From assembly GCA_018667335.1 (NCBI GenBank), contig JABIVD010000017.1, forward strand, positions 1 through 47,588: a stretch of DNA of 47,588 nt. The letters are read 5' to 3'. The notes below the pieces were generated by a model. The model did not search any database. It was not told the DNA's origin and worked only from the letters and a program-made list of their open reading frames with translations. A program made the translations under genes and the position numbers. Origin of the DNA: Rhodospirillaceae bacterium (GTDB lineage: Bacteria; Pseudomonadota; Alphaproteobacteria; UBA6615). Below are positions 15,283-47,588 of this stretch, piece by piece (the first letter of the stretch is position 1; each line of letters starts with the position of its first letter).

Positions 15283-15284
15283 CG

Positions 15285-16454: not shown

Positions 16455-16462
16455 GTGATGTC

Positions 16463-31146: not shown

Positions 31147-31174
31147 GGCGTTAGCTCCAATTGGGTTTTCAAAC

Positions 31175-32359: not shown

Positions 32360-32427
32360 TTGGTCCTCCTGAGTGTGCGACGCGTGGCGCCAGTTTCACA
32401 TATTTGGATACACCCCGTGAACGGGGT

Positions 32428-34032: not shown

Positions 34033-34041
34033 GGGCGTTGC

Positions 34042-34992
34042 TTAGCCTTCTACGAAATTTGCGGTGCCCGGCAGGAACAGGTCCTCGATGTCGGGCAGGG
34101 TGGAGATCAGCTTCTGCTCGTGCAGATAACGCAGCAGTGTGCCGACATTCTTGCGATTGCTTTCGGTCAGGCCCATGGGAAAGGGGTCGCCGCCGAACGT
34201 CGCCATGGTCTCGGTCCAGTACTCCTTGCCCCAGGGCACGAAGGTCGATCCGATCCGCCGCGCGAGCGCGCGTTTCTTGCCGTTGCAGTAGGCCGCAAAG
34301 ATGGCTGCGGGTGCGTCGGGGAAATCGTCGAGCAGCTCGCGGCGCATCACCACCGTGTGGTTAATCGGGTAGATGCCCGTACGGGAGAAATACTCGCGTT
34401 CGACGTCCTGCACGTCGCGGAAAATCGTTCGCAACTCGCGATCGGCGGGTGCTTTCTGGAGGTCGCGCGGGCGCGGTGAGATGAACGCGTCCAGCTCGCC
34501 CGCCAGCAACATTTCCTCCGGGTCGCCATCGACCAGTTCCAGCGGCGCGCCTTCGAGCGCGGGGAAGCGCTGTTCGGCGTTGGCGAACCAGTTGATGTCG
34601 CGCCAGTCCGTGTCGTACTCGTCGAGCAGGGTGCCGCGTAGCCAGACTGCCGCCGTCATCGTGTAGTCGCGCACGCCGACACGCTTGCCTTTGAGTTGCG
34701 CGGCGGAATCGAGCGGGCTGTCCTTGCGCACCCAGATGATCGAGTGGCGAAAGTCGCGATTGGCGAACACGGGGATTGCCGCCAGCCAGTCGGCCCCACG
34801 GTCGCGCATCATCGTGAAGTTGGAGAGCGAGAATTCGCAGGCCTGGAAGGGCTGGTTGTTCAGGACCTTCGCGTAGATTTCCTCGAGCACACCGGGTTCG
34901 TAGCGGATCGGTGTGTCTTCGTATGTGCCGGCCATCTCCAGGGTGAATTCATAGTCATTCCCCCGGATCAGAATGTCGTTTGCTTTGGACAT
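34042..34992 (-). CDS. 4,5-dihydroxyphthalate decarboxylase-like protein
   Basis: The 316-residue protein resembles the Pht5/SsuA-like fold family: L-K-G-K-R-V-G-V-R-D-Y near residue 102 and G-E-L-D-A-F-I-S-P-R near 165. There is no signal peptide, which favours a cytoplasmic enzyme over a binding protein. ATG 34992 follows GGGGGAGGAAATC. The catabolic neighbours suit an aromatic- or carboxylate-processing role, but the substrate is not determinable. Confidence 0.8.
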   Translation of the reverse strand: MSKANDILIRGNDYEFTLEMAGTYEDTPIRYEPGVLEEIYAKVLNNQPFQACEFSLSNFTMMRDRGADWLAAIPVFANRDFRHSIIWVRKDSPLDSAAQLKGKRVGVRDYTMTAAVWLRGTLLDEYDTDWRDINWFANAEQRFPALEGAPLELVDGDPEEMLLAGELDAFISPRPRDLQKAPADRELRTIFRDVQDVEREYFSRTGIYPINHTVVMRRELLDDFPDAPAAIFAAYCNGKKRALARRIGSTFVPWGKEYWTETMATFGGDPFPMGLTESNRKNVGTLLRYLHEQKLISTLPDIEDLFLPGTANFVEG

Positions 34993-35140
34993 GATTTCCT
35001 CCCCCAAACCGGTCTGTGCCGGTCTTTTCTGTGCATTCCACATAGCACGATCGGCGGCGCGGGACGACAGGATGTTCCCGCGCCCGGCCGGCTGTTAGAT
35101 TGGGGCAACTCAACGTTCTTTTCAGTGAAGGAATATTGCC

Positions 35141-36073
35141 ATGCGCGCCGTCTTTGCGTTCACACCGTGGGAATCCAAGCGCCTGATCGGCAAGGCGGTT
35201 GCCGCCCTGCCTGAGGTAAAATACGCGATGGAGCACGCCCAGATCGTCGTCGCCCATGGTTCGACCAACGTCTATGTGGCCGAAGAGATTACCGGCGATT
35301 GTCCGGATCGTGATCGCTACGTCTCGGGTCAGGTGATCAACGGCACCCTGTGTCAGACCCAGCCCGAGGAAAAGCCGGCCCTGATGCGGCTGGTGAAGGG
35401 CAAGGCGGTCCCGCCGGTGCCGACCATGGAGGAGACCCTTGCGGGTTGGGACGACAATTCACTCTTCATCAAGGGTGCCAACGCCGTCGATCACGAGTTC
35501 AACGCCGGTATCTTTAACGCCCATCACGCGGCGGGCACCATCGGCTGGGCCTATGGCGCGATCTGCGGCACGGGCATTCCCCTGATTGTTCCCGTCGGGC
35601 TCGAGAAGCTGGTTCCGTCGATCAAGGCCGCAGCCAATGAGCTGGGGCACGCCAAGGCCGATTATTTTTACGGCACCAAGATCGGCATGCTGCCGCTGAT
35701 GAACGCCAAGGTGATCACAGAACTTCAGGCGTTCGATATCCTGTTTGGTCTGGACGCCGTGCATGTCGGCGGCGGCGGGGTTTCGGGTTCGGAAGGCACG
35801 GTCGTGATTTCGGTGACCGGCGAGGATGTGGATGTGCGCGCGGCTATCGATCTGGTCGAGACCTTCAAGGGCGAGCCACCCCTGAAGCTGCTCAAGCGAC
35901 GTTGTGCGGATTGTTTCGCACCGCCGCCAGCCTTCACGTCGGGAACCGAAGCCGCGAAGGATGTCGGCACAGTCACAGCCGAAGAGGCCAAGGCGATCCG
36001 CCAGTGCATTTTCTCGGGCACGGCCGAAGAGGATCTGCCCGACTGGTTCAGCAAGCGTGAGCCCGTTGGCTGA
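35141..36073 (+). CDS. Unrecognised 310-residue protein
   Basis: I do not recognise this protein. It has no signal peptide or membrane helix. Visible features: F-I-K-G-A-N-A-V-D-H-E-F near residue 110, a Gly-rich run G-A-I-C-G-T-G-I-P-L-I-V-P-V-G near 140-155, a Gly cluster H-V-G-G-G-G-V-S-G-S-E near 207-217, and a C-A-D-C pair near 252. The Gly-rich loops could bind a nucleotide or anion. GAAGGA precedes the ATG. It is followed 3 nt later by the Nif11-oxygenase gene, so it may be part of that cluster; it is divergent from the decarboxylase-like gene. Confidence 0.8.
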   Translation: MRAVFAFTPWESKRLIGKAVAALPEVKYAMEHAQIVVAHGSTNVYVAEEITGDCPDRDRYVSGQVINGTLCQTQPEEKPALMRLVKGKAVPPVPTMEETLAGWDDNSLFIKGANAVDHEFNAGIFNAHHAAGTIGWAYGAICGTGIPLIVPVGLEKLVPSIKAAANELGHAKADYFYGTKIGMLPLMNAKVITELQAFDILFGLDAVHVGGGGVSGSEGTVVISVTGEDVDVRAAIDLVETFKGEPPLKLLKRRCADCFAPPPAFTSGTEAAKDVGTVTAEEAKAIRQCIFSGTAEEDLPDWFSKREPVG

Positions 36074-36076
36074 CCC

Positions 36077-37255
36077 ATGACGGATACCAAACCTGACGGC
36101 GATGTCATCCAGGAGTTCATCCGCGGCATTGCCAGGAAGACCATCGCGGATTTTGTTGTCGCCGCCACCACCGACGACGCATTTATCTCGGAACTCTGCG
36201 CCGTCGACCTTGTGCCCGACCAGGTGGCGGCGTTCGCCCAGGCCAAGGGATTTTCGTTCTCTGCCGACGAGCTGACGGCGTTCGTCGAGGACCGGATTCG
36301 CCACGAAATACCGGCCGACGAACGCGCGTTCCGCGACCGGTTTCTGGCTGCGCGTGCCGCCGGTCAAACGGCGGAGGCTATTCCGACGGACGCGGAGACG
36401 TCCGCAACGTTGCACGATGTGGCCCACACCCCGGGCTATGCGCTGGACCGTGCTTCCGTATTGCAGGGTGATGTCATTGCGCTCCGGGGGGTGCCGGCGT
36501 TACCGGCCCTTCTGGCGACGTTGGAAGACATCCTCAAGACTGCGCTTGAGGTCGAGGACCTGGAAGCCGTGCACGAAAGTCTCACATTTGCGCAGATGAA
36601 GGCGCGAAGCGAGGTTGCCTACGACAGGCTGGCGGAGGATGACCGGGTGCCGGACCTGGTGGGGGCCATCATCGACGATCTTGGCTTGGAGCGTGAACTT
36701 GTCATGTGGGAGTGGCCGGGATTCCGGCTTCTGTTCCCGGTCGAGGCCGGTGGCCGTGGTGTCTACCGGGCGGCCTACTCGGGGGCTTTGCCGGCGCACA
36801 GGGATACCTGGTACGGCTCGCCCCAGCACGAGATCAACTTGTGGGGGCCGGTCAGGCGCCTCGACGCCGATGCGACGCTTCGCATTCTGACGCGGTATTT
36901 TCGCAAGACCGTCGCCAATACTTCATACGGATACGACAATTGGCAGAACTATGCCGGCGTCGCATTGCCGCCCAGTATACGCGCGCGCGTGAACCCGGAA
37001 GGTGCGTTTGCGCCGCCGCTCGCGATCGGTGATGTCATGTGTTTCTCCGGCCATCAACTCCATGCCAGCGCTTTCAATCGATCGGGCCGGACGCGTGTGA
37101 GTTTCGAGTTTCGGCTGCTTCATCGCGGCGATGAAGGCGCAGAATATGTTCCGCCGAATGTGGACTATTACGGGGCCGGGGAAATCTACAAGGGCTGGTA
37201 CGACGCCCAGGGTCGGCCGGTGAACCGGCTCACCGGAAAATCAGGGACACACTAG
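36077..37255 (+). CDS. Nif11-like domain fused to a PhyH-like 2OG/Fe(II) oxygenase
   Basis: The 392-residue protein has two parts. Residues about 8-70 resemble the Nif11-like leader domain: a helix with F-V-V-A-A, a V-x-x-F-A-Q-A-K-G-F-S-F-S-A-D-E-L core and following helix. Nif11 leaders normally sit on RiPP precursor peptides and direct them to modifying enzymes. The rest is a PhyH-like dioxygenase core with H-R-D (His241, Asp243), a distal His near 329 in G-H-Q-L-H-A-S and an Arg in R-T-R-V-S-F. No double-Gly site follows the Nif11 part, so it is not an obvious C39 substrate. Fusion of a leader-type domain to a tailoring enzyme is unusual. It converges with the next oxygenase by overlapping stops. 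Confidence 0.78.
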   Translation: MTDTKPDGDVIQEFIRGIARKTIADFVVAATTDDAFISELCAVDLVPDQVAAFAQAKGFSFSADELTAFVEDRIRHEIPADERAFRDRFLAARAAGQTAEAIPTDAETSATLHDVAHTPGYALDRASVLQGDVIALRGVPALPALLATLEDILKTALEVEDLEAVHESLTFAQMKARSEVAYDRLAEDDRVPDLVGAIIDDLGLERELVMWEWPGFRLLFPVEAGGRGVYRAAYSGALPAHRDTWYGSPQHEINLWGPVRRLDADATLRILTRYFRKTVANTSYGYDNWQNYAGVALPPSIRARVNPEGAFAPPLAIGDVMCFSGHQLHASAFNRSGRTRVSFEFRLLHRGDEGAEYVPPNVDYYGAGEIYKGWYDAQGRPVNRLTGKSGTH

Positions 37256-37992
37256 AAAAACAGCTGCCAGACGCCGTCGCCCAGGACGCCGTGCCCCTGA
37301 AGTGAGATCCGATGCTCGTGATCTTCGGTCCGGCCTGGATTGGCCACCTGGTGGACCGTCAGCCCGTCATGCAGGACCATCGCTCCTGCCGTGTAGCTGA
37401 CGTAGCGCTTGTGGGTATCGAACCAGGCGCGCTGTTCCGGTGTCATTGCGTGCGGCGCCTTCGGGCCCGTCAGCATCGCTTCGGGAACGTCGGACCAGTG
37501 GTACATCCCGGCACCGCAGGCGGGAATACACACCGGCAGGGTGATCGAAAGGGTGGCCTCGATTTCAAAAGGAAAGCTGTGGTTGTCGTGCGGCCGGTCC
37601 ATGTGGATGGTGCCGCCAAACATCAAGCCGGGCGGCGCGCGGTGATCGCCCTTGTAGATATGGAACCCGGGCAATCCGAGTTGGTCGCTCAGTCTGGCGG
37701 GATACCCGGTCCGGTCGCCCACCGCAGCGCACACGCGCTCCAGAAGGTCACCAAAGTGTTCGCGCAGAACCGGGTTGGCAGCTGCGGCGACGCGCGGATA
37801 TGTCTCGACCGTATCGAGGTAGCTCGCCGCACCGAGGGTGTGAAACATATGGATTTGGTCGTCGAGCACCCGGCGTTCCTGCCAGCACTCTGCGACGGAC
37901 ATCAGGCAGCTGACAATGTCTGTGCAACTCTCCGCGTCGAGCACTTCGATCGGCGCGCCGCCGTGAAAAATATCCCAGTCCGGTGCCGACAT
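37252..37992 (-). CDS. 2OG/Fe(II)-type oxygenase
   Basis: The 246-residue protein has H-M-D near residue 131 in G-G-T-I-H-M-D-R-P-H-D and a distal His in D-G-L-T-V-H-Q-V, followed by an Arg in H-R-I-S-L-Q-G, the layout of a 2OG-Fe oxygenase. Family not identified. ATG 37992 overlaps the stop of the upstream AspH-like gene by one base (TGATG), so the two are coupled. A GTG at 37995 is possible. Together with the oxygenase at 36077-37255 this gives three predicted Fe oxygenases next to the exporter genes. Confidence 0.7.
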   Translation of the reverse strand: MSAPDWDIFHGGAPIEVLDAESCTDIVSCLMSVAECWQERRVLDDQIHMFHTLGAASYLDTVETYPRVAAAANPVLREHFGDLLERVCAAVGDRTGYPARLSDQLGLPGFHIYKGDHRAPPGLMFGGTIHMDRPHDNHSFPFEIEATLSITLPVCIPACGAGMYHWSDVPEAMLTGPKAPHAMTPEQRAWFDTHKRYVSYTAGAMVLHDGLTVHQVANPGRTEDHEHRISLQGHGVLGDGVWQLFF

Positions 37993-38528
37993 CACAGGTC
38001 CCCGCCGACCTCGCGCAGGTGGTCCGGGAATGCGATGTCGTCATCTGCAGACCGTTTGAAATCGAGCAGCAGGACCACTCGGTCTTCGGTTCCGCGGTTC
38101 CATGCCTCATGTTCCCTGGTGTCGTCGAAGACGAACGCCGAGCCGGGATGCCAGCCGCGTGTTTCCTGGCCGACCCGCAGTCCGCAGTCCGCCCCCCCGG
38201 TCAGGCCGAGATGAAACCTAAGCACCTGGTCTGTATAGCCGCTGTGCGGCTGGATATGTGTTGCCGGCTTCAGGCGTGAGAAGCCGGCCGTCACCATGCC
38301 GGGGATTGCTTCGATGAGGGCGGTTGTGCGCGGGCAGGCGCCACAAGTAGACTCCACTTTCTCCCCGAACCGGTAGAAGGGAAACACGGACCATGCGCCG
38401 GTGTAGATATCGCGTTCAGGCCATTCGACGAACGCATGGTGATCAATCCCATTGAGTTCCGTGCGGATGGCCTGCCAGCCTTCACAAGCAGCATTAAGAT
38501 GTGGAAAATCGTCGATACGTTCGAACAC
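37992..38528 (-). CDS. Aspartyl/asparaginyl beta-hydroxylase-like oxygenase
   Basis: The 178-residue protein resembles the AspH family core: H-I-Q-P-H-S-G-Y-T near residue 91-99, then R-F-H-L-G-L, and F-D-D-T-R-E-H-E-A-W-N near 135. AspH-type enzymes hydroxylate Asp or Asn side chains, and a relative (CinX) does so in the RiPP cinnamycin. The start is GTG 38528 with no strong ribosome site. It is divergent from the exporter genes with a 128-nt spacer. Confidence 0.78.
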   Translation of the reverse strand: MFERIDDFPHLNAACEGWQAIRTELNGIDHHAFVEWPERDIYTGAWSVFPFYRFGEKVESTCGACPRTTALIEAIPGMVTAGFSRLKPATHIQPHSGYTDQVLRFHLGLTGGADCGLRVGQETRGWHPGSAFVFDDTREHEAWNRGTEDRVVLLLDFKRSADDDIAFPDHLREVGGDL

Positions 38529-38537
38529 GACAAGTCC

Positions 38538-38660
38538 ATGCTAGTCAGAGGAGGCGAGATTCTCGATCTTCTTTATGGCATGAATGGGACGGAAATCCCT
38601 GTTCGGCATTTGGGTCGATCAATAGGTCGAGCACTGGACGGTTCAAGAGGTTCTTTATGA
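38538..38660 (+). CDS. Candidate small ORF upstream of the exporter genes (uncertain)
   Basis: A 40-residue frame (M-L-V-R-G-G-E-I-L-D-L-L to S-L) ends with a TGA that overlaps the HlyD-type start (ATGA). An in-frame ATG at 38436 would give 74 residues, with a Gly-Gly after about 40 residues and hydrophobics at -4 and -12. No Shine-Dalgarno is seen before either ATG, and the longer form lies antisense to the AspH-like gene. It is listed because the operon lacks a precursor peptide gene; it may be chance. Confidence 0.2.
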   Translation: MLVRGGEILDLLYGMNGTEIPVRHLGRSIGRALDGSRGSL

Positions 38661-39910
38661 GTGACATTTTCCGGCAGGACGCGGTCCGCAAACTCAGAGA
38701 TCCACAACAACTGGACACGGCAATACGCCTGACATCCACGTCGGGCTGGATCGCGCTGGCGTCGATTGGTGTGATCATCGTCATTTCTGTCGTCTGGGTG
38801 TTCGCCGGTTCGCTGCCGTTCCGTGCGAATGGACTTGGCGTATTGCGGGAAACGAATAGCGAGATTTTCCCCGTCCCCTCGACGATTTCCGGTCGTGTTG
38901 AAGAGGTCACCGTTGACGTCGGTGACCCGGTCAAGGAGGGGCAGGTACTGGCCCGTTTGCAGTCGCCCGAAACCGAGGCCCAACTGAACGCCGCCAAGTC
39001 GACCCTCGCCAGTCTTAGCGCGCAGCGCGACCGCCGGCGCACGCAGATCTCCGAAGATATCGCGACGCGCAAGAATATCACGGCTGACAGCATTTCGGCC
39101 CAGCAGCGCAAGGCGAAGGACCTCAACGATCGGATCGCGTATCTGCGAAGCCGTGAAAGTGACGAGCGCGACGAACTGTCCCGGGGTTTCATCACCCGCG
39201 ACACGCTTGAGGGGACGATCGAATCCATCGATACCGCGCGCCAGGAACTGCGCGCGGTCGACCTTGCGACGGCGCAGGCGCGATCGGACCAGACTGACTT
39301 TGCAGCCGGGCTGCGCCGGCAGCTGTCTGAGCTCAATCAGCAGGTGCTGGAGGCCGATAGCCGGGTCAAGGTGCTCGCTTCCCAGTTCGGTATCGAGCAT
39401 TTGGTCACCAGCCCCGCGGATGGCTTCGTCATCGAGCTGTCGAGCGAGCGGGGCGATATCGTCCCCGCGGGCACGCGGCTCGTGACGATCTCCAACCGGG
39501 GCGAGGGGCTCCAGATGTTTGCCTACTTGCCGGTGTCGAAGGGCAAGCGCGTGAAGGCCGGGATGAAGGCAAAAGTGACCCCCAGCACCGTAGAGAGGGA
39601 TATTTTCGGTTCGATCAATGCCGTCGTCATATCCGTCGGCGAACTGCCGGCCAGTGAGGCGGAGCTGCGCGACAAACTGGAGAACGAGCAGCTCGTGGAA
39701 CAGATGCTGTCGAACGGCGCGCCGATTGAGATCTTGCTGGAACTCAAAAGCGACTCCAAGACCATCAGCGGTCTCGATTGGTCGTCGTCCGTGGGCCCGC
39801 CGATCAAGGTCACTGCGGGCACGACGGCTCTGGCCACGGTTACGGTGCGCGAAGTGGCGCCGATTGACCTGGTGGTGCCGATAGTCGAAACGTGGGTGAG
39901 CGGGCGGTAG
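38657..39910 (+). CDS. HlyD-type membrane fusion protein of an NHLM-type export system
   Basis: The 417-residue protein begins F-R-Q-D-A-V-R-K-L-R-D-P-Q-Q-L-D, the start typical of NHLM-system secretion proteins, then one membrane helix (about 32-52), a lipoyl-like half-motif G-R-V-E-E-V-T-V-D-V-G-D-P-V-K-E-G near 79-95, a coiled coil and a beta-barrel. It bridges the inner membrane transporter to the envelope. ATG 38657 follows AAGAGG; the upstream open frame to 38501 is not family-like. The C39 transporter gene follows 10 nt downstream. Confidence 0.9.
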   Translation: MSDIFRQDAVRKLRDPQQLDTAIRLTSTSGWIALASIGVIIVISVVWVFAGSLPFRANGLGVLRETNSEIFPVPSTISGRVEEVTVDVGDPVKEGQVLARLQSPETEAQLNAAKSTLASLSAQRDRRRTQISEDIATRKNITADSISAQQRKAKDLNDRIAYLRSRESDERDELSRGFITRDTLEGTIESIDTARQELRAVDLATAQARSDQTDFAAGLRRQLSELNQQVLEADSRVKVLASQFGIEHLVTSPADGFVIELSSERGDIVPAGTRLVTISNRGEGLQMFAYLPVSKGKRVKAGMKAKVTPSTVERDIFGSINAVVISVGELPASEAELRDKLENEQLVEQMLSNGAPIEILLELKSDSKTISGLDWSSSVGPPIKVTAGTTALATVTVREVAPIDLVVPIVETWVSGR

Positions 39911-39920
39911 GTCGTAGATT

Positions 39921-42095
39921 ATGTCGTCACCGACCCGCAAGTCGAACCACCGTGTTCACACGCCGACGCTTCTCCAGATGGAGGCAGTCGAATGTGGCGC
40001 CGCAGCGCTGGGCAGCGTGCTTGGCTTCTATGGACTCTATGTCACGCTTGAGGAGTTGCGTGGTGCGTGCGGCGTGTCGCGCGACGGCGCCAAGGCGTCG
40101 AAGGTCGTTCAGGCGGCACGTTATTATGGGATGGAGGCCAAGGGGCAGCGGCTTGAACTGGATGAGGCGCTGGCGGAGCCGACACCCTATATCGCTTTTT
40201 GGGGCTTCAACCATTTCGTCGTGATCGACGGTGTGGGCCCGAACCATGTGTACATCAATGACCCCGCAAGCGGCCCCCGCAAGATCTCGACCAAGGAGTT
40301 CGGCGAGAACTTCACCGGTGTCGCGCTCTCCATGGAGCCCGGCCCGGAGTTTACGAAGGGCGGCCAGCGCCCAAGCACATTACGAGCCTTGCTCGACTGG
40401 GTTCGCAATTCACGCTCGGCACTGAGCTACCTCATGGCCGCCAGCCTGCTTCTGGTGTTTCCCGGGTTGCTGTTGCCGATCTTCCTGAAGACGTTCATTG
40501 ACGACGTGTTGATCCGTGGCTTTAACGATTGGGTCTTCCCGCTCGTCATTGGAATCGTGCTGGCCGGTCTCCTGGACGGACTTCTCACCTACTTCCAGCA
40601 ACGCCAGTTCTTACGGCTGCAAACGAAACTGGGGATCGCAACCGCCGGTGAATTTTTCTGGCATGTCCTGCGCCTGCCGGTGGATTTCTACACCCAGCGC
40701 TATATCGGCGATATTGCCGATCGTGTGCAGTCCTGTCATCGGCTCGCAATGCTGCTGGCTGGGCCGTTGCCGACGAACGCGGTGAACATGTTCACCGCGG
40801 TCTTCTTCGTCGTGATCATGGCCGTATATAGCGTGCCTTTGACCCTTGCCGCGGTCGGACTGACGGCGCTCAACCTTGTCGTCATTCAGTTCTCGAACCG
40901 CAAGCGTCGCGACTTGAACAACGCAATGCTCAACCAATCGGCGCAGCTCGCAGGCGCGTCGATGGCTGGCTTGCAGGCCATCGAGTCCCTGAAGGCGATG
41001 GGGACGGAGAATGACTTTTTCGTCCGCTGGTCGGGGTATCAGGTCAAGACGGTCAATACCAATCAGCAGATCGGCGGGGTGACGACGTGGTTTGATGCCG
41101 GTCCGAATGTTTTGGCGCATCTGACGACGATCGCTGTGCTTGGCGGTGGCGCCTTGCTGATCATCAATGGCCAGCTGACGATCGGCGGATTGGTGGCGTT
41201 CCAGATGCTGCTGGGGCACTTCACGGCACCGGTTCAATCGTTGCTTGGCTTCAACAGTCAATTGCAACAGGTGCGTGGAGATTTGAACCGCCTCGACGAC
41301 GTGCTGCGCCATCCACAGGATGCTTCACTGGGCGGACAGGAGGCGGCCGATGCGAACAGCGGGGCGCCGCAGAGGAAGCTGACCGGGGCGATCGAGATCC
41401 GTGATCTGACGTTCGGTTACAACCCGGACGTGAAGCTGATCGAGAACTTCAATCTTTCGCTCACGCCGGGCAAGCGCGTTGCACTTGTCGGGGGCTCGGG
41501 CAGTGGCAAGTCGACCCTGGCGAAGCTCATTCTCGGTCTGTATCAGCCCAGTTCCGGCGCGATACTTTATGACGGTAAGCCTCTGACAGAAATTCCCCGT
41601 ACGGTTTTCACAACGTCGGTCGCGTCGGTCGATCAGGATATCTTCCTGTTCGAGGGTACGATCGACGAAAACCTGACCTTGTGGGACGAAACGATTCCAC
41701 GCGACGCCGTGGTGCACGCGGCGAAGGACGCGAAAATTCACGACGAGATCGTGGCACGTCCCGGCGGCTATGACGGCTCCGTTTCGGAGCAGGGCACGAA
41801 CTTTAGCGGCGGCCAGCGCCAGCGCCTCGAGATCGCCCGCGCGCTGGTCCAGAAACCCAGCGTGATCATCCTTGACGAAGCGACGGCCGCGCTCGATCCG
41901 GTCACCGAACAAATTGTCGACGACAATCTGCGCAGGCGTGGTTGCACTTGCATCATCGTAGCCCACCGCCTCAGCACGATCCGTGATTGCGAGGAGATCA
42001 TCCTTCTGGATCAAGGCAAGGTTGCCGAACGGGGAACCCATGATGAACTGATGGCACTCGGCGGACATTATTTCAGACTGGTGACGTTGCAATGA
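39921..42095 (+). CDS. Peptidase-containing ABC transporter (C39, NHLM type)
   Basis: The 724-residue protein is an NHLM-type bacteriocin exporter. Residues 1-150 are a C39 peptidase with Gln19, Cys25 (Q-M-E-A-V-E-C-G-A), His98 (F-N-H-F) and Asp114 (N-D-P-A), all catalytic residues present, so it should cut leaders after a double Gly. Residues about 160-460 form a six-helix membrane domain; about 490-724 is an ATPase with Walker A G-S-G-S-G-K-S-T, signature F-S-G-G-Q-R-Q-R and Walker B V-I-I-L-D-E-A-T. Its stop overlaps the next start by ATGA. Substrates would be Nif11- or nitrile-hydratase-leader peptides. Confidence 0.93.
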   Translation: MSSPTRKSNHRVHTPTLLQMEAVECGAAALGSVLGFYGLYVTLEELRGACGVSRDGAKASKVVQAARYYGMEAKGQRLELDEALAEPTPYIAFWGFNHFVVIDGVGPNHVYINDPASGPRKISTKEFGENFTGVALSMEPGPEFTKGGQRPSTLRALLDWVRNSRSALSYLMAASLLLVFPGLLLPIFLKTFIDDVLIRGFNDWVFPLVIGIVLAGLLDGLLTYFQQRQFLRLQTKLGIATAGEFFWHVLRLPVDFYTQRYIGDIADRVQSCHRLAMLLAGPLPTNAVNMFTAVFFVVIMAVYSVPLTLAAVGLTALNLVVIQFSNRKRRDLNNAMLNQSAQLAGASMAGLQAIESLKAMGTENDFFVRWSGYQVKTVNTNQQIGGVTTWFDAGPNVLAHLTTIAVLGGGALLIINGQLTIGGLVAFQMLLGHFTAPVQSLLGFNSQLQQVRGDLNRLDDVLRHPQDASLGGQEAADANSGAPQRKLTGAIEIRDLTFGYNPDVKLIENFNLSLTPGKRVALVGGSGSGKSTLAKLILGLYQPSSGAILYDGKPLTEIPRTVFTTSVASVDQDIFLFEGTIDENLTLWDETIPRDAVVHAAKDAKIHDEIVARPGGYDGSVSEQGTNFSGGQRQRLEIARALVQKPSVIILDEATAALDPVTEQIVDDNLRRRGCTCIIVAHRLSTIRDCEEIILLDQGKVAERGTHDELMALGGHYFRLVTLQ

Positions 42096-45000
42096 GTTCC
42101 CTGGATTTTCTTTTCGGTGAAGGCGGAATCGGCGCTGCGGCGCAGGCCGCCTGGTCGGAACCGGCCCGAACTCTGGTCGTATCCCTTGGTCTTGCTGACG
42201 AGGTGACCGCAAACGGTGCCTCGGACGCGGCCGCGGGCTCACCGGACCCGCAAGTGTGGCTGGTGCTTGCCGGGACCATCGATCTTTTCTTCGTGGACGC
42301 CATGAATGGCGGGCGTCATCACCTGTTCCGGGTGGCTGCCGGTGGTGTGGCATTCGACACGGCTCTGGACCATGCGAACGGGACGCTCATGCTGGTGCCG
42401 TCGAACGGTGCCCGCATTGTTCGGGTCCCCATGGCCCGGCTCGGTGAGCAGGAAACACCTTCGGATGAGTATGCGGATGCGCTCGCACTCGCATTTTCCC
42501 GTTGGGTTGCAGGCCTCGGGCAGATCGCTTTGCGTCACGACCGGCCGGCGTCGTTGGCCTATCTGGACCCCGACGCGCCGATGCTCGATGCCGTCGCGTC
42601 GACGAAAACAACGGTCGCCTGGTTCCCGGCTGATCAGGTTCACCATTCGATGTGGGCGGATGCCGTGCCGCAATTCGAAGCGGGCGCTCGCCAGGTGCCA
42701 TTGCTGCCGCATCATTGGGCATCCCCGGCGGGCGATGCCCCGGTCGCGGGCATGACGACCCGGGCATGGATTGAAACCGCGGAAGCGTTGGACGACCTGG
42801 TCGCATTCCATGGGCGTGTGATCGAGACCCTTTCTGACAAGTTGGCCCGTGCGGCGTCCGCCGAAACGGAGCGACTTGGTCAGGTCCACAATTTGCACGA
42901 ACGCACACTTGGCGGTGCGCTCGCTAATCTCGCATCGGTCATGTTCCCCGCTGAACGTGACCAGGTGCAAGATTCCGGAGAACCCGCGATCGCGGCCGCA
43001 GTGCACGTATGGCGTGCGCTTGGTATCCAGGTGGAACTCAGTGATGCCGCCCAGACGCGTGTGCGCGAGGCGGAACAGAAAATCGACGTGCTCACGCGCG
43101 AGGCAGGCCTGCACAGTCGCAAGGTGGACCTGTCGGAACCGGACTGGTGGCGATCAGATCACGGGGCGTTGTATGGCTTTTCCGGTGAAGAGCGGACGCC
43201 GTGTGCGTTATTGCCAGGCAAGGGTGGCGTCTATCGGGTCGTTGACTCGTCGACCGGCGAGGAACGTCGTCTCGATGCGGCCTCTGCCGCGGACATAGAC
43301 GCCGTCGCCTATGTCTTCAGCGAACCATTCCCGGCAGGCCAGATCATGCCGCGGACCATACTCGGCTTCGCCCTGCGGGGCACCCGACGCACGGCACTGA
43401 TGGTGATGACCATGGCGATTCTGGCGGGTGCCCTGTCGATGGTCGTGCCGCTGGCGACGGGCTGGATCATGGACCCGGTGATTCCCGACGCCGAACTCGG
43501 GCAACTCTGGGTGTTGATTGGGGTGCTGGTCGTTGCGGGGTTTGCGGCCATCTCATTCGGGTTGGTGCAGGGTTTGTCGGCCATTCATATGGAAGGCCAG
43601 ATGGGGAACCGGGTGCAGACGGCGGTCTGGGACCGTTTGCTGCGATTGCCGGCAACCTTCTTCCGCGGCTACACCGTCGGTGATCTCGCCAATAGGGCAC
43701 AGGGTATCGACGCGATGCGGGCGATGCTGACGGGCACAACGCTGACGACCCTGCTGCATGCCACGTCGGGAATATTCAGTCTCGCGCTGATGGTCTGGCT
43801 CGCCTGGAAACTGGCGCTCGTCGGGATTGGTGCGGCGATCATCTATTCCGTGGTCGTGGTGACGATCGGGCGCACCATCCTGAAACGCAACCGCGAGACG
43901 ATGGAGTACACCGGGCGTATCCAGGGCGTGGTTCTGCAGCTGCTTGGCGCGGTCGGCAAGCTGCGTGTCGCGGGCGCGGAGACGGGCGCCTATGCGCGTT
44001 GGGCGGCACCGTATTCTCACCTTATGGCGGTCAGCTACGATCAGCAGCGCCTGAATATGCTGTTGGTTGTTTTCAAGGGAGTCTTCAATTTTCTCTCCAT
44101 CGCGGCGCTTATCGCTCTGATCGCCTGGATCAGCGGTGAATTGTTTGCCGTCTTTGAGACCCCGAAAACCTGGGCCCAGGTCGATGCGGTTGCTCTGCAC
44201 AAGGCGCTACCAACTGCCACATTCGTATCGTTCCACGTCGCCTTCGGTCAGTTTCTTGGTGCCGTGTACGGGATTTCACAAACGCTCGTGAAGTTGACCA
44301 ACCTGAAACCGCTATACGAGCGTATCGAGCCGATTTTCGACGAGGAGGTCGAAGACGACGCAGGGTTCGAGGACCCGGGGGTCCTGACGGGAGCCATCGA
44401 GATCGCAGATGTGCAGTTCCGCTATGCCGAGGACGCGCCGCTCGTGCTGCGTGGACTGACGATGCAAATCGAACCGGGAAGTTTCGTGGCCGTCGTCGGT
44501 ACATCGGGGGCGGGCAAGTCGACCCTGGTGCGCCTGTTGCTCGGTTTCGACAGTTCGGAATCCGGCTCGGTTTTTTATGATGGCCAGGATCTGGCGCATC
44601 TCGACAAGAGCCTGCTGCGTCGCCAGTTCGGCGTGGTGTTGCAGAATGGGCGGGCGCTTGCGGGATCCCTGTTCGACAATATTTCCGCCGGCGCGAACGT
44701 GACCCGTGACGATGCCATGGAGGCGGCTCGCCTTGCCGGTCTGGAGAAGGATATCGAGCAATTGCCCATGGGTCTCGACACCTATCTCAGTGAGGGAGCG
44801 TCAACCCTGTCGGGTGGGCAGCGCCAGCGAATGATGATCGCGCGCGCCATTGTGAATCGGCCGAAAATTCTGATCTTCGACGAGGCGACCAGCGCCCTCG
44901 ATAACGAGACCCAGGCGCTCGTCAGCAAGGGGCTCGAGGAATTCGATGCGACCCGAATTGTCATCGCTCACCGGTTGTCGACGATTGTCCACGCGGACAA

Positions 45001-45106
45001 GATCTTCGTGTTGGATCAGGGCAAGGTCGCGGAACAGGGGAGCTACAACGAGCTGATGGCAACGGACGGCCTGTTTGCCCAGCTGGCAAAACGGCAGATT
45101 GCCTGA
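42092..45106 (+). CDS. NHLM-type ABC transporter, long N-terminal domain, no peptidase
   Basis: The 1004-residue protein is the second ATPase of NHLM systems. Residues 1-420 form a non-peptidase region whose start resembles a cNMP/cupin-like barrel (V-W-L-V-L-A-G-T-I-D near 49, later I-V-R-V-P-M). Residues about 425-700 are the membrane domain, and about 765-1004 the ATPase, with Walker A G-T-S-G-A-G-K-S-T, signature L-S-G-G-Q-R-Q-R and Walker B I-L-I-F-D-E-A-T. It works with the C39 transporter in the exporter. Start ATG 42092 is coupled to the upstream stop. Confidence 0.9.
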   Translation: MSSLDFLFGEGGIGAAAQAAWSEPARTLVVSLGLADEVTANGASDAAAGSPDPQVWLVLAGTIDLFFVDAMNGGRHHLFRVAAGGVAFDTALDHANGTLMLVPSNGARIVRVPMARLGEQETPSDEYADALALAFSRWVAGLGQIALRHDRPASLAYLDPDAPMLDAVASTKTTVAWFPADQVHHSMWADAVPQFEAGARQVPLLPHHWASPAGDAPVAGMTTRAWIETAEALDDLVAFHGRVIETLSDKLARAASAETERLGQVHNLHERTLGGALANLASVMFPAERDQVQDSGEPAIAAAVHVWRALGIQVELSDAAQTRVREAEQKIDVLTREAGLHSRKVDLSEPDWWRSDHGALYGFSGEERTPCALLPGKGGVYRVVDSSTGEERRLDAASAADIDAVAYVFSEPFPAGQIMPRTILGFALRGTRRTALMVMTMAILAGALSMVVPLATGWIMDPVIPDAELGQLWVLIGVLVVAGFAAISFGLVQGLSAIHMEGQMGNRVQTAVWDRLLRLPATFFRGYTVGDLANRAQGIDAMRAMLTGTTLTTLLHATSGIFSLALMVWLAWKLALVGIGAAIIYSVVVVTIGRTILKRNRETMEYTGRIQGVVLQLLGAVGKLRVAGAETGAYARWAAPYSHLMAVSYDQQRLNMLLVVFKGVFNFLSIAALIALIAWISGELFAVFETPKTWAQVDAVALHKALPTATFVSFHVAFGQFLGAVYGISQTLVKLTNLKPLYERIEPIFDEEVEDDAGFEDPGVLTGAIEIADVQFRYAEDAPLVLRGLTMQIEPGSFVAVVGTSGAGKSTLVRLLLGFDSSESGSVFYDGQDLAHLDKSLLRRQFGVVLQNGRALAGSLFDNISAGANVTRDDAMEAARLAGLEKDIEQLPMGLDTYLSEGASTLSGGQRQRMMIARAIVNRPKILIFDEATSALDNETQALVSKGLEEFDATRIVIAHRLSTIVHADKIFVLDQGKVAEQGSYNELMATDGLFAQLAKRQIA

Positions 45107-45130
45107 CCAACCGGCGATGACCAACGGGCG

Positions 45131-46687
45131 ATGACGAACGACGACACGCAGCGACTTTCCGCAGAAACGTGGCAGCGCGTTTGTTTCCATATCGACGGCA
45201 TGGCGATCGGGACCAGTGTCTCTACGCTGGAACGAGCCGGTGTGTTCGGGCATTTGCAGGCCGCGACGACAGTGCTTGAGGTTTCCGAAATCGCCGAGAA
45301 GTTCGCGCTCAAAGCAGGCTATCTGAACCTCGTGTTCCGACTTTTGGAGCTCCAGGGATATGTCGATCGATCCGGTGATGTCGCCGGTGGAAAAGCAGAT
45401 GTCAGCCTGACGTCTGGCGGACGTGCGTGGGTCGCAGACCTGACGCCCTACCGCGATGCGCCTGCGCGTATTGAACAGGCGCGTGCATTGTTGGCGGGGC
45501 ATGAGGGACGTATGGCGTCGCCAGGTGCGGCCCCGGTGGAGATGCCCCATCGCGTGCGCTGCAATGTTGAAGGGGCCGAGGTCGCGGCCGTGATGACAGC
45601 GTTCACTCGCGATGCGACGTTTGATCGATTGGTCGAAGTTGCAGCCGCCGGGCTCGAACTTAGCGATCTCTCCTGTGCAGCAGCGGCAGATGTGCTGGCG
45701 CAACAGGGATGGGTTTCAATCGACGATAATCGCGTCCGGCTGACGGAAGCGGGACATATCGCGAGACAGATGGCACCCCAGTATTTTTATCCTGCGAGCT
45801 ATCTTGCCACGCTGGCATCGGTGCCCGATTTGCTGCACGGACAAGGCGATGCGGCCATGTCGCGCGCCGCGGACGGGACCGAAGGGCATGTCGACCGCGA
45901 ACTGGATATCGAGTTCAGCGGACTGGTCTTCGCCCGGACCTGCCGCGTCCCGTTGTTCGATTTGGTTCTGCCCCTGTTCGATGACACGCCGCTCGACGAA
46001 CAACCGCGTGCGATTGTGGATTGCGGAGCGGGTGACGGCACGCTGCTGTGCGAAGTGTACGATGCGATCGTGACGCAAACCGCACGAGGGCGAGCGCTCG
46101 ACAGCCATCCGCTGGTGATGGTCGGGGTCGAGTACAATCCGGTCGCCGAGCGGGTCCTCGCGGAACGGCTCAACGCCTTGCGTATTCCCAACCTGGTGTT
46201 CGCCGGAGATATCGGTGACCCCGACTCAATCGCGCAACGACTGGCCGACGGAGGATTTGGGGCGGACGACCTCCTGCATGTCAGCAAGTCGGTGTTTCAC
46301 AATCGCACCTATGTCGGCACGGCGGCGGGCTCGGACGCGGCCTCGACGGGCGCCTTCGTTGCGCCAGGAGGCAATCTGTTGACCGCAGCCCAGGTCGAGG
46401 CGGATCTGGAATCACTGTTCAGGCGTTGGCGGGATGGTCTCGGGCGGCATGGGATGGTTGTGGTGGAGGCCCATATTGCGGACGCAGCGCTCGTGGCGAA
46501 GCGTCTCGGTCGGAGTGTCACCACCTGGCTCGAGGCGTCACACGGCTATTCAAATCAATATTTGGTCGAGGCCGCTGTCCATCGCCGCGTGGCGGCGCGT
46601 GCCGGACTGCAAACACGCGGCGCACGCGAGTTCGGCATCGAGATTGCGGGCGCCCCGATGATGACCATCGATCACTACGACGCCTGA
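45131..46687 (+). CDS. AprA-like SAM methyltransferase
   Basis: The 518-residue protein has an N-terminal winged-helix dimerisation region (about 1-110) and a SAM-binding core with motif I V-D-C-G-A-G-D-G-T-L near residues 296-305, then G-V-E-Y-N-P near 337 and L-H-V-S-K-S-V-F-H-N-R-T-Y near 385-397. The layout resembles the AprA-type methyltransferases of polyketide and peptide pathways. It starts 24 nt after the exporter ATPase gene, in a short tandem repeat that also contains a decoy ATG at 45118. It could methylate the exported product. Confidence 0.82.
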   Translation: MTNDDTQRLSAETWQRVCFHIDGMAIGTSVSTLERAGVFGHLQAATTVLEVSEIAEKFALKAGYLNLVFRLLELQGYVDRSGDVAGGKADVSLTSGGRAWVADLTPYRDAPARIEQARALLAGHEGRMASPGAAPVEMPHRVRCNVEGAEVAAVMTAFTRDATFDRLVEVAAAGLELSDLSCAAAADVLAQQGWVSIDDNRVRLTEAGHIARQMAPQYFYPASYLATLASVPDLLHGQGDAAMSRAADGTEGHVDRELDIEFSGLVFARTCRVPLFDLVLPLFDDTPLDEQPRAIVDCGAGDGTLLCEVYDAIVTQTARGRALDSHPLVMVGVEYNPVAERVLAERLNALRIPNLVFAGDIGDPDSIAQRLADGGFGADDLLHVSKSVFHNRTYVGTAAGSDAASTGAFVAPGGNLLTAAQVEADLESLFRRWRDGLGRHGMVVVEAHIADAALVAKRLGRSVTTWLEASHGYSNQYLVEAAVHRRVAARAGLQTRGAREFGIEIAGAPMMTIDHYDA

Positions 46688-47588
46688 ACGACGGTTTTCG
46701 GATCGTTCAGAAATGCCGCAAGCAGCGGCGAGAGGCGCTCGGTGTCGTAAAGGAAGCCGCCGTGGCCGGCCGGGCTGTTGAGCGTGTCGTGCCGGCAGCC
46801 GGTGCTGTTCTCACGCAACGCGACGGCGATTTCTTCCATGTCCTCGGCCGGATATCGCCAGTCGCCGGTATAGCTGATCAGCAGGGTGGGGGCAGCGTAG
46901 CGGGCAAATGCTGCGGCGAGGTCAGCGTGCCCGCGCCTCATGTCGAAATAGTCGATGGCGCGCGTGAGATACAGCAGCGCGTTGGCGTCGATGCGACCGG
47001 CGGCATTCCGGCTGACACCTTCGAGAAACTCTTCCACCGCATATTCCGGCTCGAAGCCGTATTGCGGTTCGTCACCCTCGATCCGCCGGAGCCCAAACTT
47101 GGTCTCGAAGACCTCGCGGCTCATCCAGAACAGGGCGCCGAACATGGCAGCCAGGCCGAGCCCGGTATCGGGTGCGTCACGGTTATAGTAATTGCCACCG
47201 TTCCAGTTGGGGTCGCTGCGGATGGCGGCCCGCAGGACGGACCAGAGCGCGGTGTTGTGGGCAGATGTGCGCGGCGTGGCCGATATCACCACCGAACTGC
47301 CGACCATGTCCGGGTGCCGCGCCATCCATTCCATTGCCTGAAAGCCGCCGAAACAGCCACCTATGATGCTGTGAAAGCGCGTGATTCCGAGTTTGTCCGC
47401 CAGGCGGGCGTGGCTTTCAACGCTGTCGCCGATGGTGACGATTGGAAACCGTGACCCGTAGGGCAGGTTTGTCTCGGGATCGGGTGATGCGGCTGACGTG
47501 CTGCCGCCATAGCTCCCCAGGGCGTTGGGTGACACGACGAAGTAGCGATCGGTGTCGATAGCTTTACCGGGCCCGATCGCCGCATCCC
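46675..47588 (-). CDS. MetX-like acyltransferase/alpha-beta hydrolase with Cys nucleophile (partial, runs off right edge)
   Basis: The reading frame is open to the window edge (over 300 residues visible) and matches homoserine O-acyltransferases: G-P-G-K-A-I-D-T-D-R-Y-F-V near the edge, N-A-L-G-S-Y-G-G-S-T, and L-G-I-T-R-F-H-S-I-I-G-G-C-F-G-G-F. The nucleophile of the family is Ser in G-G-S-M-G-G; here it is Cys (codon 47353-47355). The Asp (G-D-W-R-Y-P) and His (G-H-G-G-F-L) of the triad are present. The gene converges on the methyltransferase gene, overlapping by 13 nt. It may acylate or act as a thioesterase; the neighbour suggests a role in the RiPP-like locus. The N terminus is outside the window. 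Confidence 0.8.
   Translation of the reverse strand, partial: DAAIGPGKAIDTDRYFVVSPNALGSYGGSTSAASPDPETNLPYGSRFPIVTIGDSVESHARLADKLGITRFHSIIGGCFGGFQAMEWMARHPDMVGSSVVISATPRTSAHNTALWSVLRAAIRSDPNWNGGNYYNRDAPDTGLGLAAMFGALFWMSREVFETKFGLRRIEGDEPQYGFEPEYAVEEFLEGVSRNAAGRIDANALLYLTRAIDYFDMRRGHADLAAAFARYAAPTLLISYTGDWRYPAEDMEEIAVALRENSTGCRHDTLNSPAGHGGFLYDTERLSPLLAAFLNDPKTVVQAS

What the first reader, a model, noticed from the sequence alone, without database searches (positions are those of the whole stretch)
35141..47588. RiPP-like biosynthesis and export locus with NHLM transporters and several Fe oxygenases
A HlyD adaptor, C39 peptidase transporter with intact triad and second NHLM ATPase are clustered with a Nif11-oxygenase fusion, two further oxygenases, an AprA-like methyltransferase, an unknown protein and a MetX-like acyltransferase. 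The enzyme set points to a heavily oxidised, methylated and perhaps acylated peptide, an undescribed product class as far as I can tell.
Basis: partly seen in the sequence, partly recalled or inferred. Interest (0 to 1): 0.85.

Follow-up and report, generated by a model that had tools for sequence, protein, structure and literature searches.

The report
Half of an epimerised-peptide gene cluster
A bacterium, probably marine, carries a cluster that appears to make and export small, heavily modified peptides, probably with mirror-image amino acids; the window holds only half of it, and the peptide genes lie on another contig.

Summary
The precursors lie on contig C3: nine Nif11-leader genes, with a PoyD-family epimerase, a B12 radical-SAM C-methyltransferase, a TolC-family protein and a GNAT. 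A sister species has both halves on one contig; another relative carries a deletion scar whose ends are the Nif11-oxygenase (window) and the GNAT (C3). The cluster is thus about 21.8 kb, from window 36077 to C3:11553. The 310-aa gene is a flanking neighbour. The window's last 1.26 kb, including the MetX fragment, is identical to the sister species and looks like an assembly chimera. The predicted product is a polytheonamide-like peptide (D-residues, C-methyl, hydroxyl), probably acylated on Lys1, cut at Gly-Gly and exported. Relatives occur in two other orders of the class; a Mesorhizobium plasmid has a smaller version with a homologous core. It is not a new class, but an unusual branch: AprA-type methyltransferase beside a Cys-nucleophile MetX homologue in the five clusters where both could be read, a Nif11-fused oxygenase, and a His tract in one conserved core. 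All chemistry is inferred.

The parts
36077..37255 (+). Nif11-oxygenase fusion, 392 aa: Nif11 domain (res. 20-66), then a 2OG-Fe(II) oxygenase-like domain with H241-R-D243 and H326/H329; left end of the cluster
   Evidence: PF07862 24.7 bits (cut-off 23.8), PhyH below cut-off; 41-42% identical homologues in G228, G394, G374; left end of the G008 deletion scar. AlphaFold model poor, no fold match
37252..37995 (-). second putative 2OG-Fe(II) oxygenase, 247 aa, H131-M-D133 ... H215
   Evidence: no Pfam match; low-confidence model (mean pLDDT 59.4) matches WelO5 and SadA folds, best E 5.9e-6, TM-scores up to about 0.5; 69% identical copy in G021, 30% beside HlyD in G297
37992..38528 (-). aspartyl/asparaginyl beta-hydroxylase family protein, 178 aa
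   Evidence: PF05118 145.8 bits; OlsC and LpxO models match below cut-off; among the loci read, a copy in G021 only
38657..39910 (+). NHLM HlyD-type adaptor (start at 38657 preferred to the GTG at 38501)
   Evidence: TIGR03794 273.5 bits, matched from residue 64 of the longer ORF
39921..42095 (+). NHLM ABC1: C39 peptidase + permease + ATPase, triad C25/H98/D114
   Evidence: TIGR03796 1002.6 bits; motifs
42092..45106 (+). NHLM ABC2 permease/ATPase with about 300-residue N-terminal extension, no C39 match
   Evidence: TIGR03797 802.7 bits from residue 297; no Peptidase_C39 in Pfam scan; Walker A/B and LSGGQ
45131..46687 (+). AprA-like stand-alone C-methyltransferase, 518 aa (sequence from about 46325 on is identical to the sister species)
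   Evidence: PF23525 240.8 bits, PF23526 40.7, PF23589 22.7 (below its cut-off of 27); AprA MT1 6b39 E 2.3e-74 with a profile
46675..47586 (-). MetX-like alpha/beta-hydrolase fragment (303 aa, no start), Cys nucleophile GGCFGG; probably foreign (chimeric) sequence; the genuine copy is C3:378-1493
   Evidence: PRK00175 306.2 bits, below its cut-off of 331; 100% DNA identity to G021, 86% to C3 over the 1,291-base overlap
46325..47588 (.). stretch identical to sister species G021: probable assembly chimera; native and foreign sequence cannot be told apart up to 46359
   Evidence: 0 mismatches in 1,264 bases; upstream 250-base bins of the shared cluster 0.68-0.98 identical, the highest ones in the methyltransferase gene; C3:1-62 equals window 46298-46359, then diverges
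35141..36073 (+). 310-aa protein of unknown function: flanking gene, NOT part of the cluster
   Evidence: two matches in each of the 5 genomes of the family listed from the 385-genome sample, four of them without the methyltransferase; abuts OsmC in G023, which lacks the cluster

Best explanation
The stretch is the left half of a gene cluster for Nif11-leader, radical-SAM-epimerised RiPPs that work like proteusins. Precursors on contig C3 carry a leader of about 72 residues ending in Gly-Gly, then cores of 29-52 residues rich in Val, Ala and Thr that start with Lys. Inferred order: the leader recruits the PoyD-like enzyme, which turns L- into D-residues at many sites; the B12 radical-SAM enzyme C-methylates unactivated carbons; two or three non-heme iron oxygenases hydroxylate, one of them carrying its own Nif11 domain; the GNAT acylates Lys1; the AprA-type methyltransferase and the Cys-MetX homologue act as a pair on an acyl group or on the core; the C39 domain of ABC1 cuts after Gly-Gly; HlyD, ABC1, ABC2 and the TolC-family protein export the product. 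The product is probably a membrane-active or metal-binding D/L peptide. Shown by sequence: the gene content, the link between the two contigs by synteny, motifs, conservation and core homology. Inferred: every reaction, its order, and the activity.
For: Precursors: nine Nif11 matches over cut-off on C3; cores K-initial in 8 of 9; over the first eight, mean leader identity 72% against 46% for cores (28 pairs). Enzymes: TIGR04517 520.7 bits with CxxxCxxC, TIGR03975 644.2 bits with Cx7CxxC; PF02321 TolC-family protein, 170 bits. The Cx7Cx2C motif is reported for PoyC (PMC11285071, passages). Linkage of the two contigs: sister G021 has both halves on one contig; C3 starts with 62 bases shared with the window; G008 has Nif11-oxygenase codons 10-247 abutting reversed GNAT codon 131 at one nucleotide, a scar of the lost cluster; G023 has the empty site. 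Recurrence: MT-MetX-rSAM-TolC-Nif11-PoyD in order in G228, G374, G394; PoyD matched in 5 of 385 class genomes (3 over its cut-off), 4 of the 5 with this cluster. Minimal version on a Mesorhizobium sp. L-2-11 plasmid: Nif11-PoyD-GNAT-rSAM-HlyD-ABC1-ABC2. Core homology of G000 (precursor 5148) and M. huakuii with the His tract removed: z 5.3, 0 of 500 shuffles as high. All 10 genes compared between G000 and G021 have dN below dS. Lys1 acylation by a GNAT acting on a Nif11-leader peptide has precedent (NpuN, PMC13060382, passages); the GNAT P-loop is present.
Against: No chemistry can be read from sequence. The two contigs are joined by inference; I saw no reads. G021 has a broken Nif11-oxygenase, one intact precursor and two with internal stops, so the pathway seems to be decaying there, and G008 and G023 lack it. 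Outside the genus the Asp/Asn hydroxylase was not seen and ox247 only as a distant relative in G297. In G394 the Nif11-oxygenase is on another contig among unrelated genes. G297 has HlyD-ABC1-ABC2-MT, but no PoyD, Nif11-oxygenase or second MetX homologue was found there (genome 86% complete, contig ends inside the MT). Six of the eight GGK cores in G000 lack a His tract of three or more. Some marine-rhizobial core comparisons are weak (z 2.8-3.1), and the compared G000 precursor was picked for its likeness. Three of the four rhizobial epimerase loci opened show no exporter match in the stretch read. The S. meliloti precursors lack the Gly-Gly-Lys junction. The Nif11-oxygenase model failed.
Confidence: 0.85

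Rival explanations
1. Proteusin sensu stricto: a true polytheonamide or aeronamide-type cluster, with the methyltransferase as the PoyE counterpart that N-methylates Asn.
For: PoyD-like epimerase and PoyC-like Cx7CxxC methyltransferase, oxygenases, long leader, Val-rich cores.
Against: The three precursors tested have Nif11 leaders (TIGR03798), not nitrile hydratase-like ones. The MT is PF23525, whereas PoyE/AerE are placed in PF05175 (PMC9259500, passage); the G000 cores hold few Asn. No LanM-like dehydratase among the cluster proteins scanned.
Confidence: 0.1
2. The methyltransferase and MetX homologue build or attach a branched acyl group: the MT C-methylates a malonyl-type unit as AprA MT1 does (that activity is recalled), and the Cys-nucleophile MetX homologue or the GNAT moves it to Lys1 or a Thr hydroxyl.
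For: Its only PDB matches are AprA MT1 and a related polyketide-synthase protein; MT and MetX homologue are adjacent and convergent in all 5 clusters in which both could be read (G000 on C3, G021, G228, G374, G394), and neither matches in the four rhizobial epimerase loci read; all 5 distinct cluster copies have GGC[FM]GG, while the other MetX gene of each of six genomes has GGSMG[GA].
Against: No acyl carrier protein or ketosynthase among the cluster proteins scanned; the MT could equally methylate the peptide. The GNAT occurs without the pair in Mesorhizobium.
Confidence: 0.3
3. C55 and C3 carry two separate copies (tandem duplication) of the MT-MetX region, or a true recombinant, and the window tail is real.
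For: Two MetX sequences 86% identical over 1,291 bases in one bin; the native part of the MT has dS 0.16 to G021 against 0.62-1.80 for nine other cluster genes, so recombination between the two species is likely here.
Against: G021 has one copy on its contig; the tail matches G021 at 1,264 of 1,264 bases and runs to the contig end.
Confidence: 0.1
4. Coincidental neighbours: exporter plus unrelated oxygenases.
For: The 310-aa gene and the Asp/Asn hydroxylase were not seen with the exporter outside the family or genus, and ox247 only as a distant homologue in G297.
Against: Conserved block in three orders, deletion scar bounded by Nif11-oxygenase and GNAT.
Confidence: 0.03

Closest known systems
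Polytheonamide / aeronamide (poy, aer) proteusins
   Same: PoyD-type radical-SAM epimerase, B12 radical-SAM C-methyltransferase with Cx7CxxC, iron oxygenase, long leader, Val-rich core
   Different: Nif11 rather than nitrile-hydratase leader; no PF05175 N-methyltransferase and no LanM-like dehydratase seen; AprA-type MT, GNAT, Cys-MetX; NHLM export trio with C39; nine precursors
Pythonamide (ere) of Ca. Eudoremicrobium
   Same: marine; epimerase, C-methyltransferase, oxygenase and a SAM methyltransferase
   Different: ere uses an FkbM-type backbone N-methyltransferase (PMC9259500, passages); here AprA-type, plus GNAT and Nif11 leaders
plp of Pleurocapsa (PlpD epimerase; nitrile-hydratase and Nif11 leaders)
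   Same: PoyD homologue with precursors that include Nif11-type leaders (PMC11002830, passages)
   Different: no PlpX-type enzyme among the families matched here
Selidamides and nostolysamides (GNAT-acylated Nif11/NHLP peptides)
   Same: GNAT of about 300 aa with an N-terminal P-loop; core begins with Lys; Gly-Gly junction; C39 transporter (PMC13060382, passages)
   Different: those characterised are lanthipeptides; here no LanM-like enzyme seen and no Cys in the nine G000 cores; acylation untested
Rhizobial plasmid loci annotated Nif11 precursor / RiPP epimerase / GNAT / radical-SAM C-methyltransferase / NHLP export
   Same: same core set of genes in Mesorhizobium sp. L-2-11, subsets in three others; homologous cores
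   Different: no match to AprA-type MT, Cys-MetX, TolC or the oxygenases in the four loci read
AprA MT1 of apratoxin biosynthesis
   Same: AprA N-terminal and methyltransferase domains (winged-helix match below cut-off); shared His/Gln columns (H390, H448, H471, Q476)
   Different: here a stand-alone gene in a RiPP cluster, not part of a polyketide synthase

Membership tests
Proteusin (strict) | nitrile-hydratase-like leader | tested here: not met
   three of nine precursors tested match TIGR03798 Nif11 over cut-off (43.2, 37.2, 39.7 bits; cut-off 32.3); an NHLP-clan model appears for one at E 0.006, below its cut-off
Epimerised RiPP (PoyD-type) | PoyD-family radical-SAM epimerase with CxxxCxxC beside a precursor | tested here: met
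   TIGR04517 520.7 bits, cut-off 325; CSVGCWFC
Epimerised RiPP (PoyD-type) | D-amino acids in the product | not testable with these tools
   needs expression in D2O or Marfey analysis
Polytheonamide-type | B12 radical-SAM C-methyltransferase with Cx7CxxC | tested here: met
   TIGR03975 644.2 bits; CWWGERQHCTFC
Polytheonamide-type | PoyE-family N-methyltransferase (PF05175) | tested here: not met
   the cluster's SAM methyltransferase is PF23525; no PF05175 match among the cluster proteins scanned
Polytheonamide-type / lanthipeptide | LanM-like dehydratase | tested here: not met
   none among the proteins scanned from window 35141-47586 and C3:381-18888
Nif11-leader RiPP (N11P) | TIGR03798 leader with Gly-Gly and paralogous expansion | tested here: met
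NHLM export system | TIGR03794 + TIGR03796 + TIGR03797 together | tested here: met
   all three over cut-off, consecutive
Selidamide | GNAT that lipidates Lys/Orn side chains | tested here: inconclusive
   GNAT with RxxGxG P-loop conserved in the cluster and Lys1 conserved; acylation not testable here; NpuN itself was not compared
AprA MT1-type methyltransferase | PF23525 domain with metal-ligand residues | tested here: inconclusive
   PF23525 240.8 bits; His/Gln columns shared with 6b39, but which of them bind the metal is recalled, not looked up
MetX (homoserine O-acyltransferase) | Ser nucleophile (GGSMGG elbow; motif recalled, and seen in the other MetX genes) | tested here: not met
   Cys in all 5 distinct cluster copies, Ser in the other MetX gene of six genomes
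MetX (homoserine O-acyltransferase) | score over curated MetX models | tested here: inconclusive
   full C3 copy 395 bits on PRK00175 (cut-off 331, passed) but 355.6 on TIGR01392 (cut-off 500) and 358.7 on MetX_succinyl (cut-off 560), not passed

The most novel reading that the evidence does not exclude
A conserved peptide family, shared by alphaproteobacteria of the open water and legume symbionts (in Rhizobium sp. NXC14 about 1.8 kb before nifH), in which a ribosomal D/L peptide carries an acylated Lys1, a metal-binding His tract and a Val-rich tail; in the first branch an AprA-type metal-dependent C-methyltransferase and a Cys-nucleophile MetX homologue make or attach a branched acyl group. 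A use of the AprA enzyme family on a ribosomal peptide is not mentioned in the one review of RiPP methyltransferases that I searched for it (0 occurrences of AprA or apratoxin in PMC11285071); none of my paper searches paired AprA with RiPPs.
Probability: 0.25. Interest if true: 0.8.

Novelty: new variant of a known kind. Interest (0 to 1): 0.6.

Why it matters
It turns an orphan export cluster into a testable pathway with its substrates in hand, brings an AprA-type methyltransferase and an active-site-changed MetX homologue into reach of RiPP chemistry, and links this peptide family to one carried on rhizobial plasmids. It also shows that contig edges in metagenome genomes can both hide the precursors and splice in foreign sequence.

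Tried and rejected
Considered and rejected: (a) the window alone as the cluster; (b) the 310-aa protein as a pathway gene; (c) the MT as a PoyE counterpart; (d) ox247 as a halogenase because WelO5 is its best fold match: it keeps the Asp of HxD (that halogenases of this kind lose it is recalled); (e) tandem MT-MetX duplication.

Led nowhere: genome-contig scan with the Nif11-oxygenase gave no relative; the same collection with the MT alignment gave 2 loci; viral contigs none; the Nif11-oxygenase model had mean pLDDT 49.9 and no fold match at E 0.001; PDB sequence searches with the Nif11-oxygenase, ox247 and the 310-aa protein gave nothing useful. Nif11 + Rhodospirillales + RiPP and proteusin + histidine-rich returned 0 papers; proteusin + Alphaproteobacteria + gene cluster returned 4 and Nif11 + oxygenase + fusion + RiPP returned 5, listings only, none on this system by title or abstract start. 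No paper search paired rhizobia with the epimerase, so I cannot say whether the rhizobial loci are described. Papers of which I saw passages only: PMC11285071, PMC9259500, PMC2887384, PMC13060382, PMC11002830, PMC10858898, PMC9505594, PMC10676384. The selidamide paper in PNAS is not held.

Rows set aside: of 8 of 385 class genomes with an MT match, G266 was opened and none of its ORFs matched another cluster gene; G129 (match inside an 8,044-codon frame) and G371 (1,711 codons) were not opened. G381 has a PoyD-like gene in three pieces and no MT match. In the core comparison I used 1 of the 9 G000 precursors, 1 of the 2 of G394, those of G228 and G374 and the two Mesorhizobium ones; the Rhizobium and Sinorhizobium precursors were read but not scored. 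Rhizobial and other PoyD hits number 53 plasmid records; I opened 4 epimerase loci. The PLSDB gene table is incomplete, so I also ran tblastn with the cluster proteins on these loci.

Full report
What was checked. The window is contig C55 (bases 1-47588) of a 3.55-Mb, 62-contig genome. The transporter trio is unambiguous: TIGR03794, TIGR03796 and TIGR03797, each above its curated cut-off and consecutive, with C39 residues C25, H98, D114 and intact ATPase motifs. The Nif11 domain on the oxygenase is real but weak (24.7 bits, cut-off 23.8) and is kept as an N-terminal extension in homologues from G228, G394 and G374.

The precursors. A genome-wide Nif11 search gave ten matches over the cut-off: the oxygenase fusion and nine on contig C3 between 5151 and 13224. 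Translated, eight have a leader of about 72 residues ending in GG, then a Lys-initial core of 29-52 residues; V+A+T+I make 48-76% of these cores. The ninth (13078) differs, with GGV and a core poor in these residues. The start codon of the second (about 5580) is uncertain. Among the first eight, leaders are 72% and cores 46% identical on average over 28 pairs. On C3 lie, in order: end of an MT gene, MetX homologue, B12 radical-SAM C-methyltransferase (TIGR03975), TolC-family protein (PF02321, 170 bits; the TIGR01844 model is below its cut-off), two precursors, PoyD-family epimerase (TIGR04517), six precursors, a GNAT, an OsmC-like gene, the ninth precursor and a second GNAT.

Linking the contigs. 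In G021, a species of the same genus, one contig holds both halves in the same order. C3 begins with 62 bases equal to window 46298-46359 and then differs. Window 46325-47588 is identical to G021 (1,264 bases, no mismatch); upstream, 250-base bins of the shared cluster are 68-98% identical, mostly 70-90%, with the highest values (92-98%) inside the MT gene. The simplest reading is that the assembler crossed into the sister species inside a conserved stretch of the MT gene and that C3 is the native continuation. The native part of the MT has dS 0.16 against G021, while nine other cluster genes have 0.62-1.80, so a recombination tract probably made the region confusable. A true recombinant cannot be excluded without reads.

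Boundaries. G023, of the same genus and without the MT, has the 310-aa gene directly followed by the OsmC gene, with 136 bases between the matched ends. G008, of another genus of the family, has Nif11-oxygenase codons 10-247 running into the reversed GNAT gene at codon 131 at the same nucleotide: a deletion scar of the whole interior. Hence the cluster runs from the Nif11-oxygenase (window 36077) to the GNAT (C3:11553), about 21.8 kb if the 62-base overlap is the join. The 310-aa gene is outside; it has two matches in each of the five genomes of the family listed from the 385-genome sample. The ninth precursor and second GNAT lie beyond the OsmC gene; the second GNAT is also in G023 and G008, while the ninth precursor has no match between OsmC and that GNAT in G023.

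Distribution. The MT matched 8 of 385 genomes of the class at E 1e-15, 2 of 24 of the family (the order search, drew the same 24) and 2 of 398 in the phylum sample at E 1e-30, one of them G000 itself and the other G129, not opened. Five of the eight (G000, G228, G374, G394, G297) have the MT beside the NHLM trio. G228, G374 and G394 have MT, MetX homologue, radical-SAM methyltransferase, TolC, Nif11 precursor and epimerase in the same order. They belong to two further orders: the order searches centred on G228 and on G374 each drew only 4 genomes, all of one family (f98 and f60). PoyD matched in 5 of 385 (3 over its cut-off), four with this cluster; the fifth, G381, has it in three pieces. The Nif11-oxygenase was found in 5 of 7 genomes searched: intact in G000, G228, G394 and G374, broken in G021; not in G297 or G266. 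In G374 it adjoins HlyD, in G228 it lies about 3.5 kb beyond the GNAT, and in G394 it is among other genes on another contig. A 28-30% relative of ox247 adjoins HlyD in G297.

A smaller relative in rhizobia. A search of plasmids for the epimerase matched 53 records, mostly Rhizobium (24), Sinorhizobium (21) and Mesorhizobium (5). Mesorhizobium sp. L-2-11 has Nif11 precursor, epimerase, GNAT, radical-SAM methyltransferase, HlyD, ABC1 and an ABC2 homologue in a row. M. huakuii has precursor, epimerase, GNAT and radical-SAM methyltransferase; S. meliloti lacks the GNAT; in Rhizobium sp. NXC14 only the precursor and epimerase matched, about 1.8 kb before nifH; no exporter matched in these three stretches. 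None of the four loci matched MT, MetX homologue, TolC or the oxygenases. With the His tract removed, the G000 core (5148, chosen for its likeness) aligns to the M. huakuii core at z 5.3 and to G228 at z 10.5, with none of 500 shuffles as high; the weakest marine-rhizobial pairs are z 2.8-3.1. The precursors compared have H2-H8 right after the Lys or Lys-Gly; six of the eight GGK cores of G000 have no such tract of three or more.

How it most likely works. Families and precedents: PoyD-type enzymes make D-residues; PoyC, with Cx7Cx2C, methylates beta-carbons; PoyI and EreI hydroxylate (PMC11285071, PMC9505594, PMC9259500, passages read). NHLM transporters were proposed to cut at Gly-Gly and export (PMC2887384, passages). 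NpuN, a tandem GNAT, acylates Lys1 of a Nif11-leader peptide (PMC13060382, passages). Here the GNAT has the RxxGxG P-loop in all 5 homologues examined, and Lys follows GG in the eight G000 cores, G228, G374, both G394 precursors and the two Mesorhizobium cores, though not in S. meliloti. I therefore commit to: epimerise, C-methylate, hydroxylate, acylate Lys1, cut, export. A D/L alternating, Val-rich core suggests a beta-helix that inserts in membranes, as in polytheonamide, with the His tract as a metal-binding head; this last part is inference.

The odd enzymes. The MT is closest in the PDB to AprA MT1 and a related polyketide-synthase protein (6b39, E 2.3e-74 by profile), not to PoyE, which is placed in PF05175 (PMC9259500). 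H390, H448, H471 and Q476 are invariant in the three MTs aligned and match His/Gln in AprA; that some of these bind the metal is recalled. The MetX homologue has Cys at the nucleophile elbow in all 5 distinct cluster copies, while the other MetX gene of each of six genomes has Ser. MT and MetX genes sit tail to tail in all five clusters where both could be read. I suggest that they act as a pair on an acyl group, at about 0.3.

Verdict. A real, nearly complete and evolutionarily supported RiPP system, a new variant of the epimerised Nif11/proteusin kind.

Noticed in passing
window 46325-47588 and C3:1-1291: Probable assembly chimera: identical to sister species G021; the native continuation is on C3. 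A warning for any analysis of this contig's end.
   Followed up: yes
window about 45000-46300: The native part of the MT gene has dS 0.16 to G021 while nine other cluster genes have 0.62-1.80: likely recombination between the two species.
   Followed up: partly
L091 (S. meliloti pHRB800), L090 (Rhizobium NXC14), L092 (Mesorhizobium L-2-11), L089 (M. huakuii): Nif11 precursors with a PoyD-family epimerase on rhizobial plasmids, in NXC14 about 1.8 kb before nifH; the S. meliloti precursors lack the Gly-Gly-Lys junction.
   Followed up: partly
L088 (G008:C2) about 11306: Deletion scar joining Nif11-oxygenase and GNAT remnants where the cluster was lost.
   Followed up: yes
G021 C97, window-oriented 1-780 and 14835-17831: Nif11-oxygenase in two pieces in different frames with its middle missing, and two precursors with internal stops beside one intact one: pathway decay in the sister species.
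   Followed up: partly
window 30328-35043: Amidohydrolase, cobalamin-independent methionine-synthase-like protein, GMC oxidoreductase and a possible substrate-binding protein (Pfam match just below cut-off): a catabolic-looking block left of the cluster.
   Followed up: no
window 22326-23348: A further 2OG-Fe(II) oxygenase (DIOX_N/2OG-FeII_Oxy), 12.7 kb upstream and not linked to the cluster by any evidence here.
   Followed up: no
L075 (G381:C1): Nif11 precursor, PoyD-like gene and radical-SAM methyltransferase pieces in broken frames in an 8-Mb genome of one contig: a possible decaying relative.
   Followed up: partly
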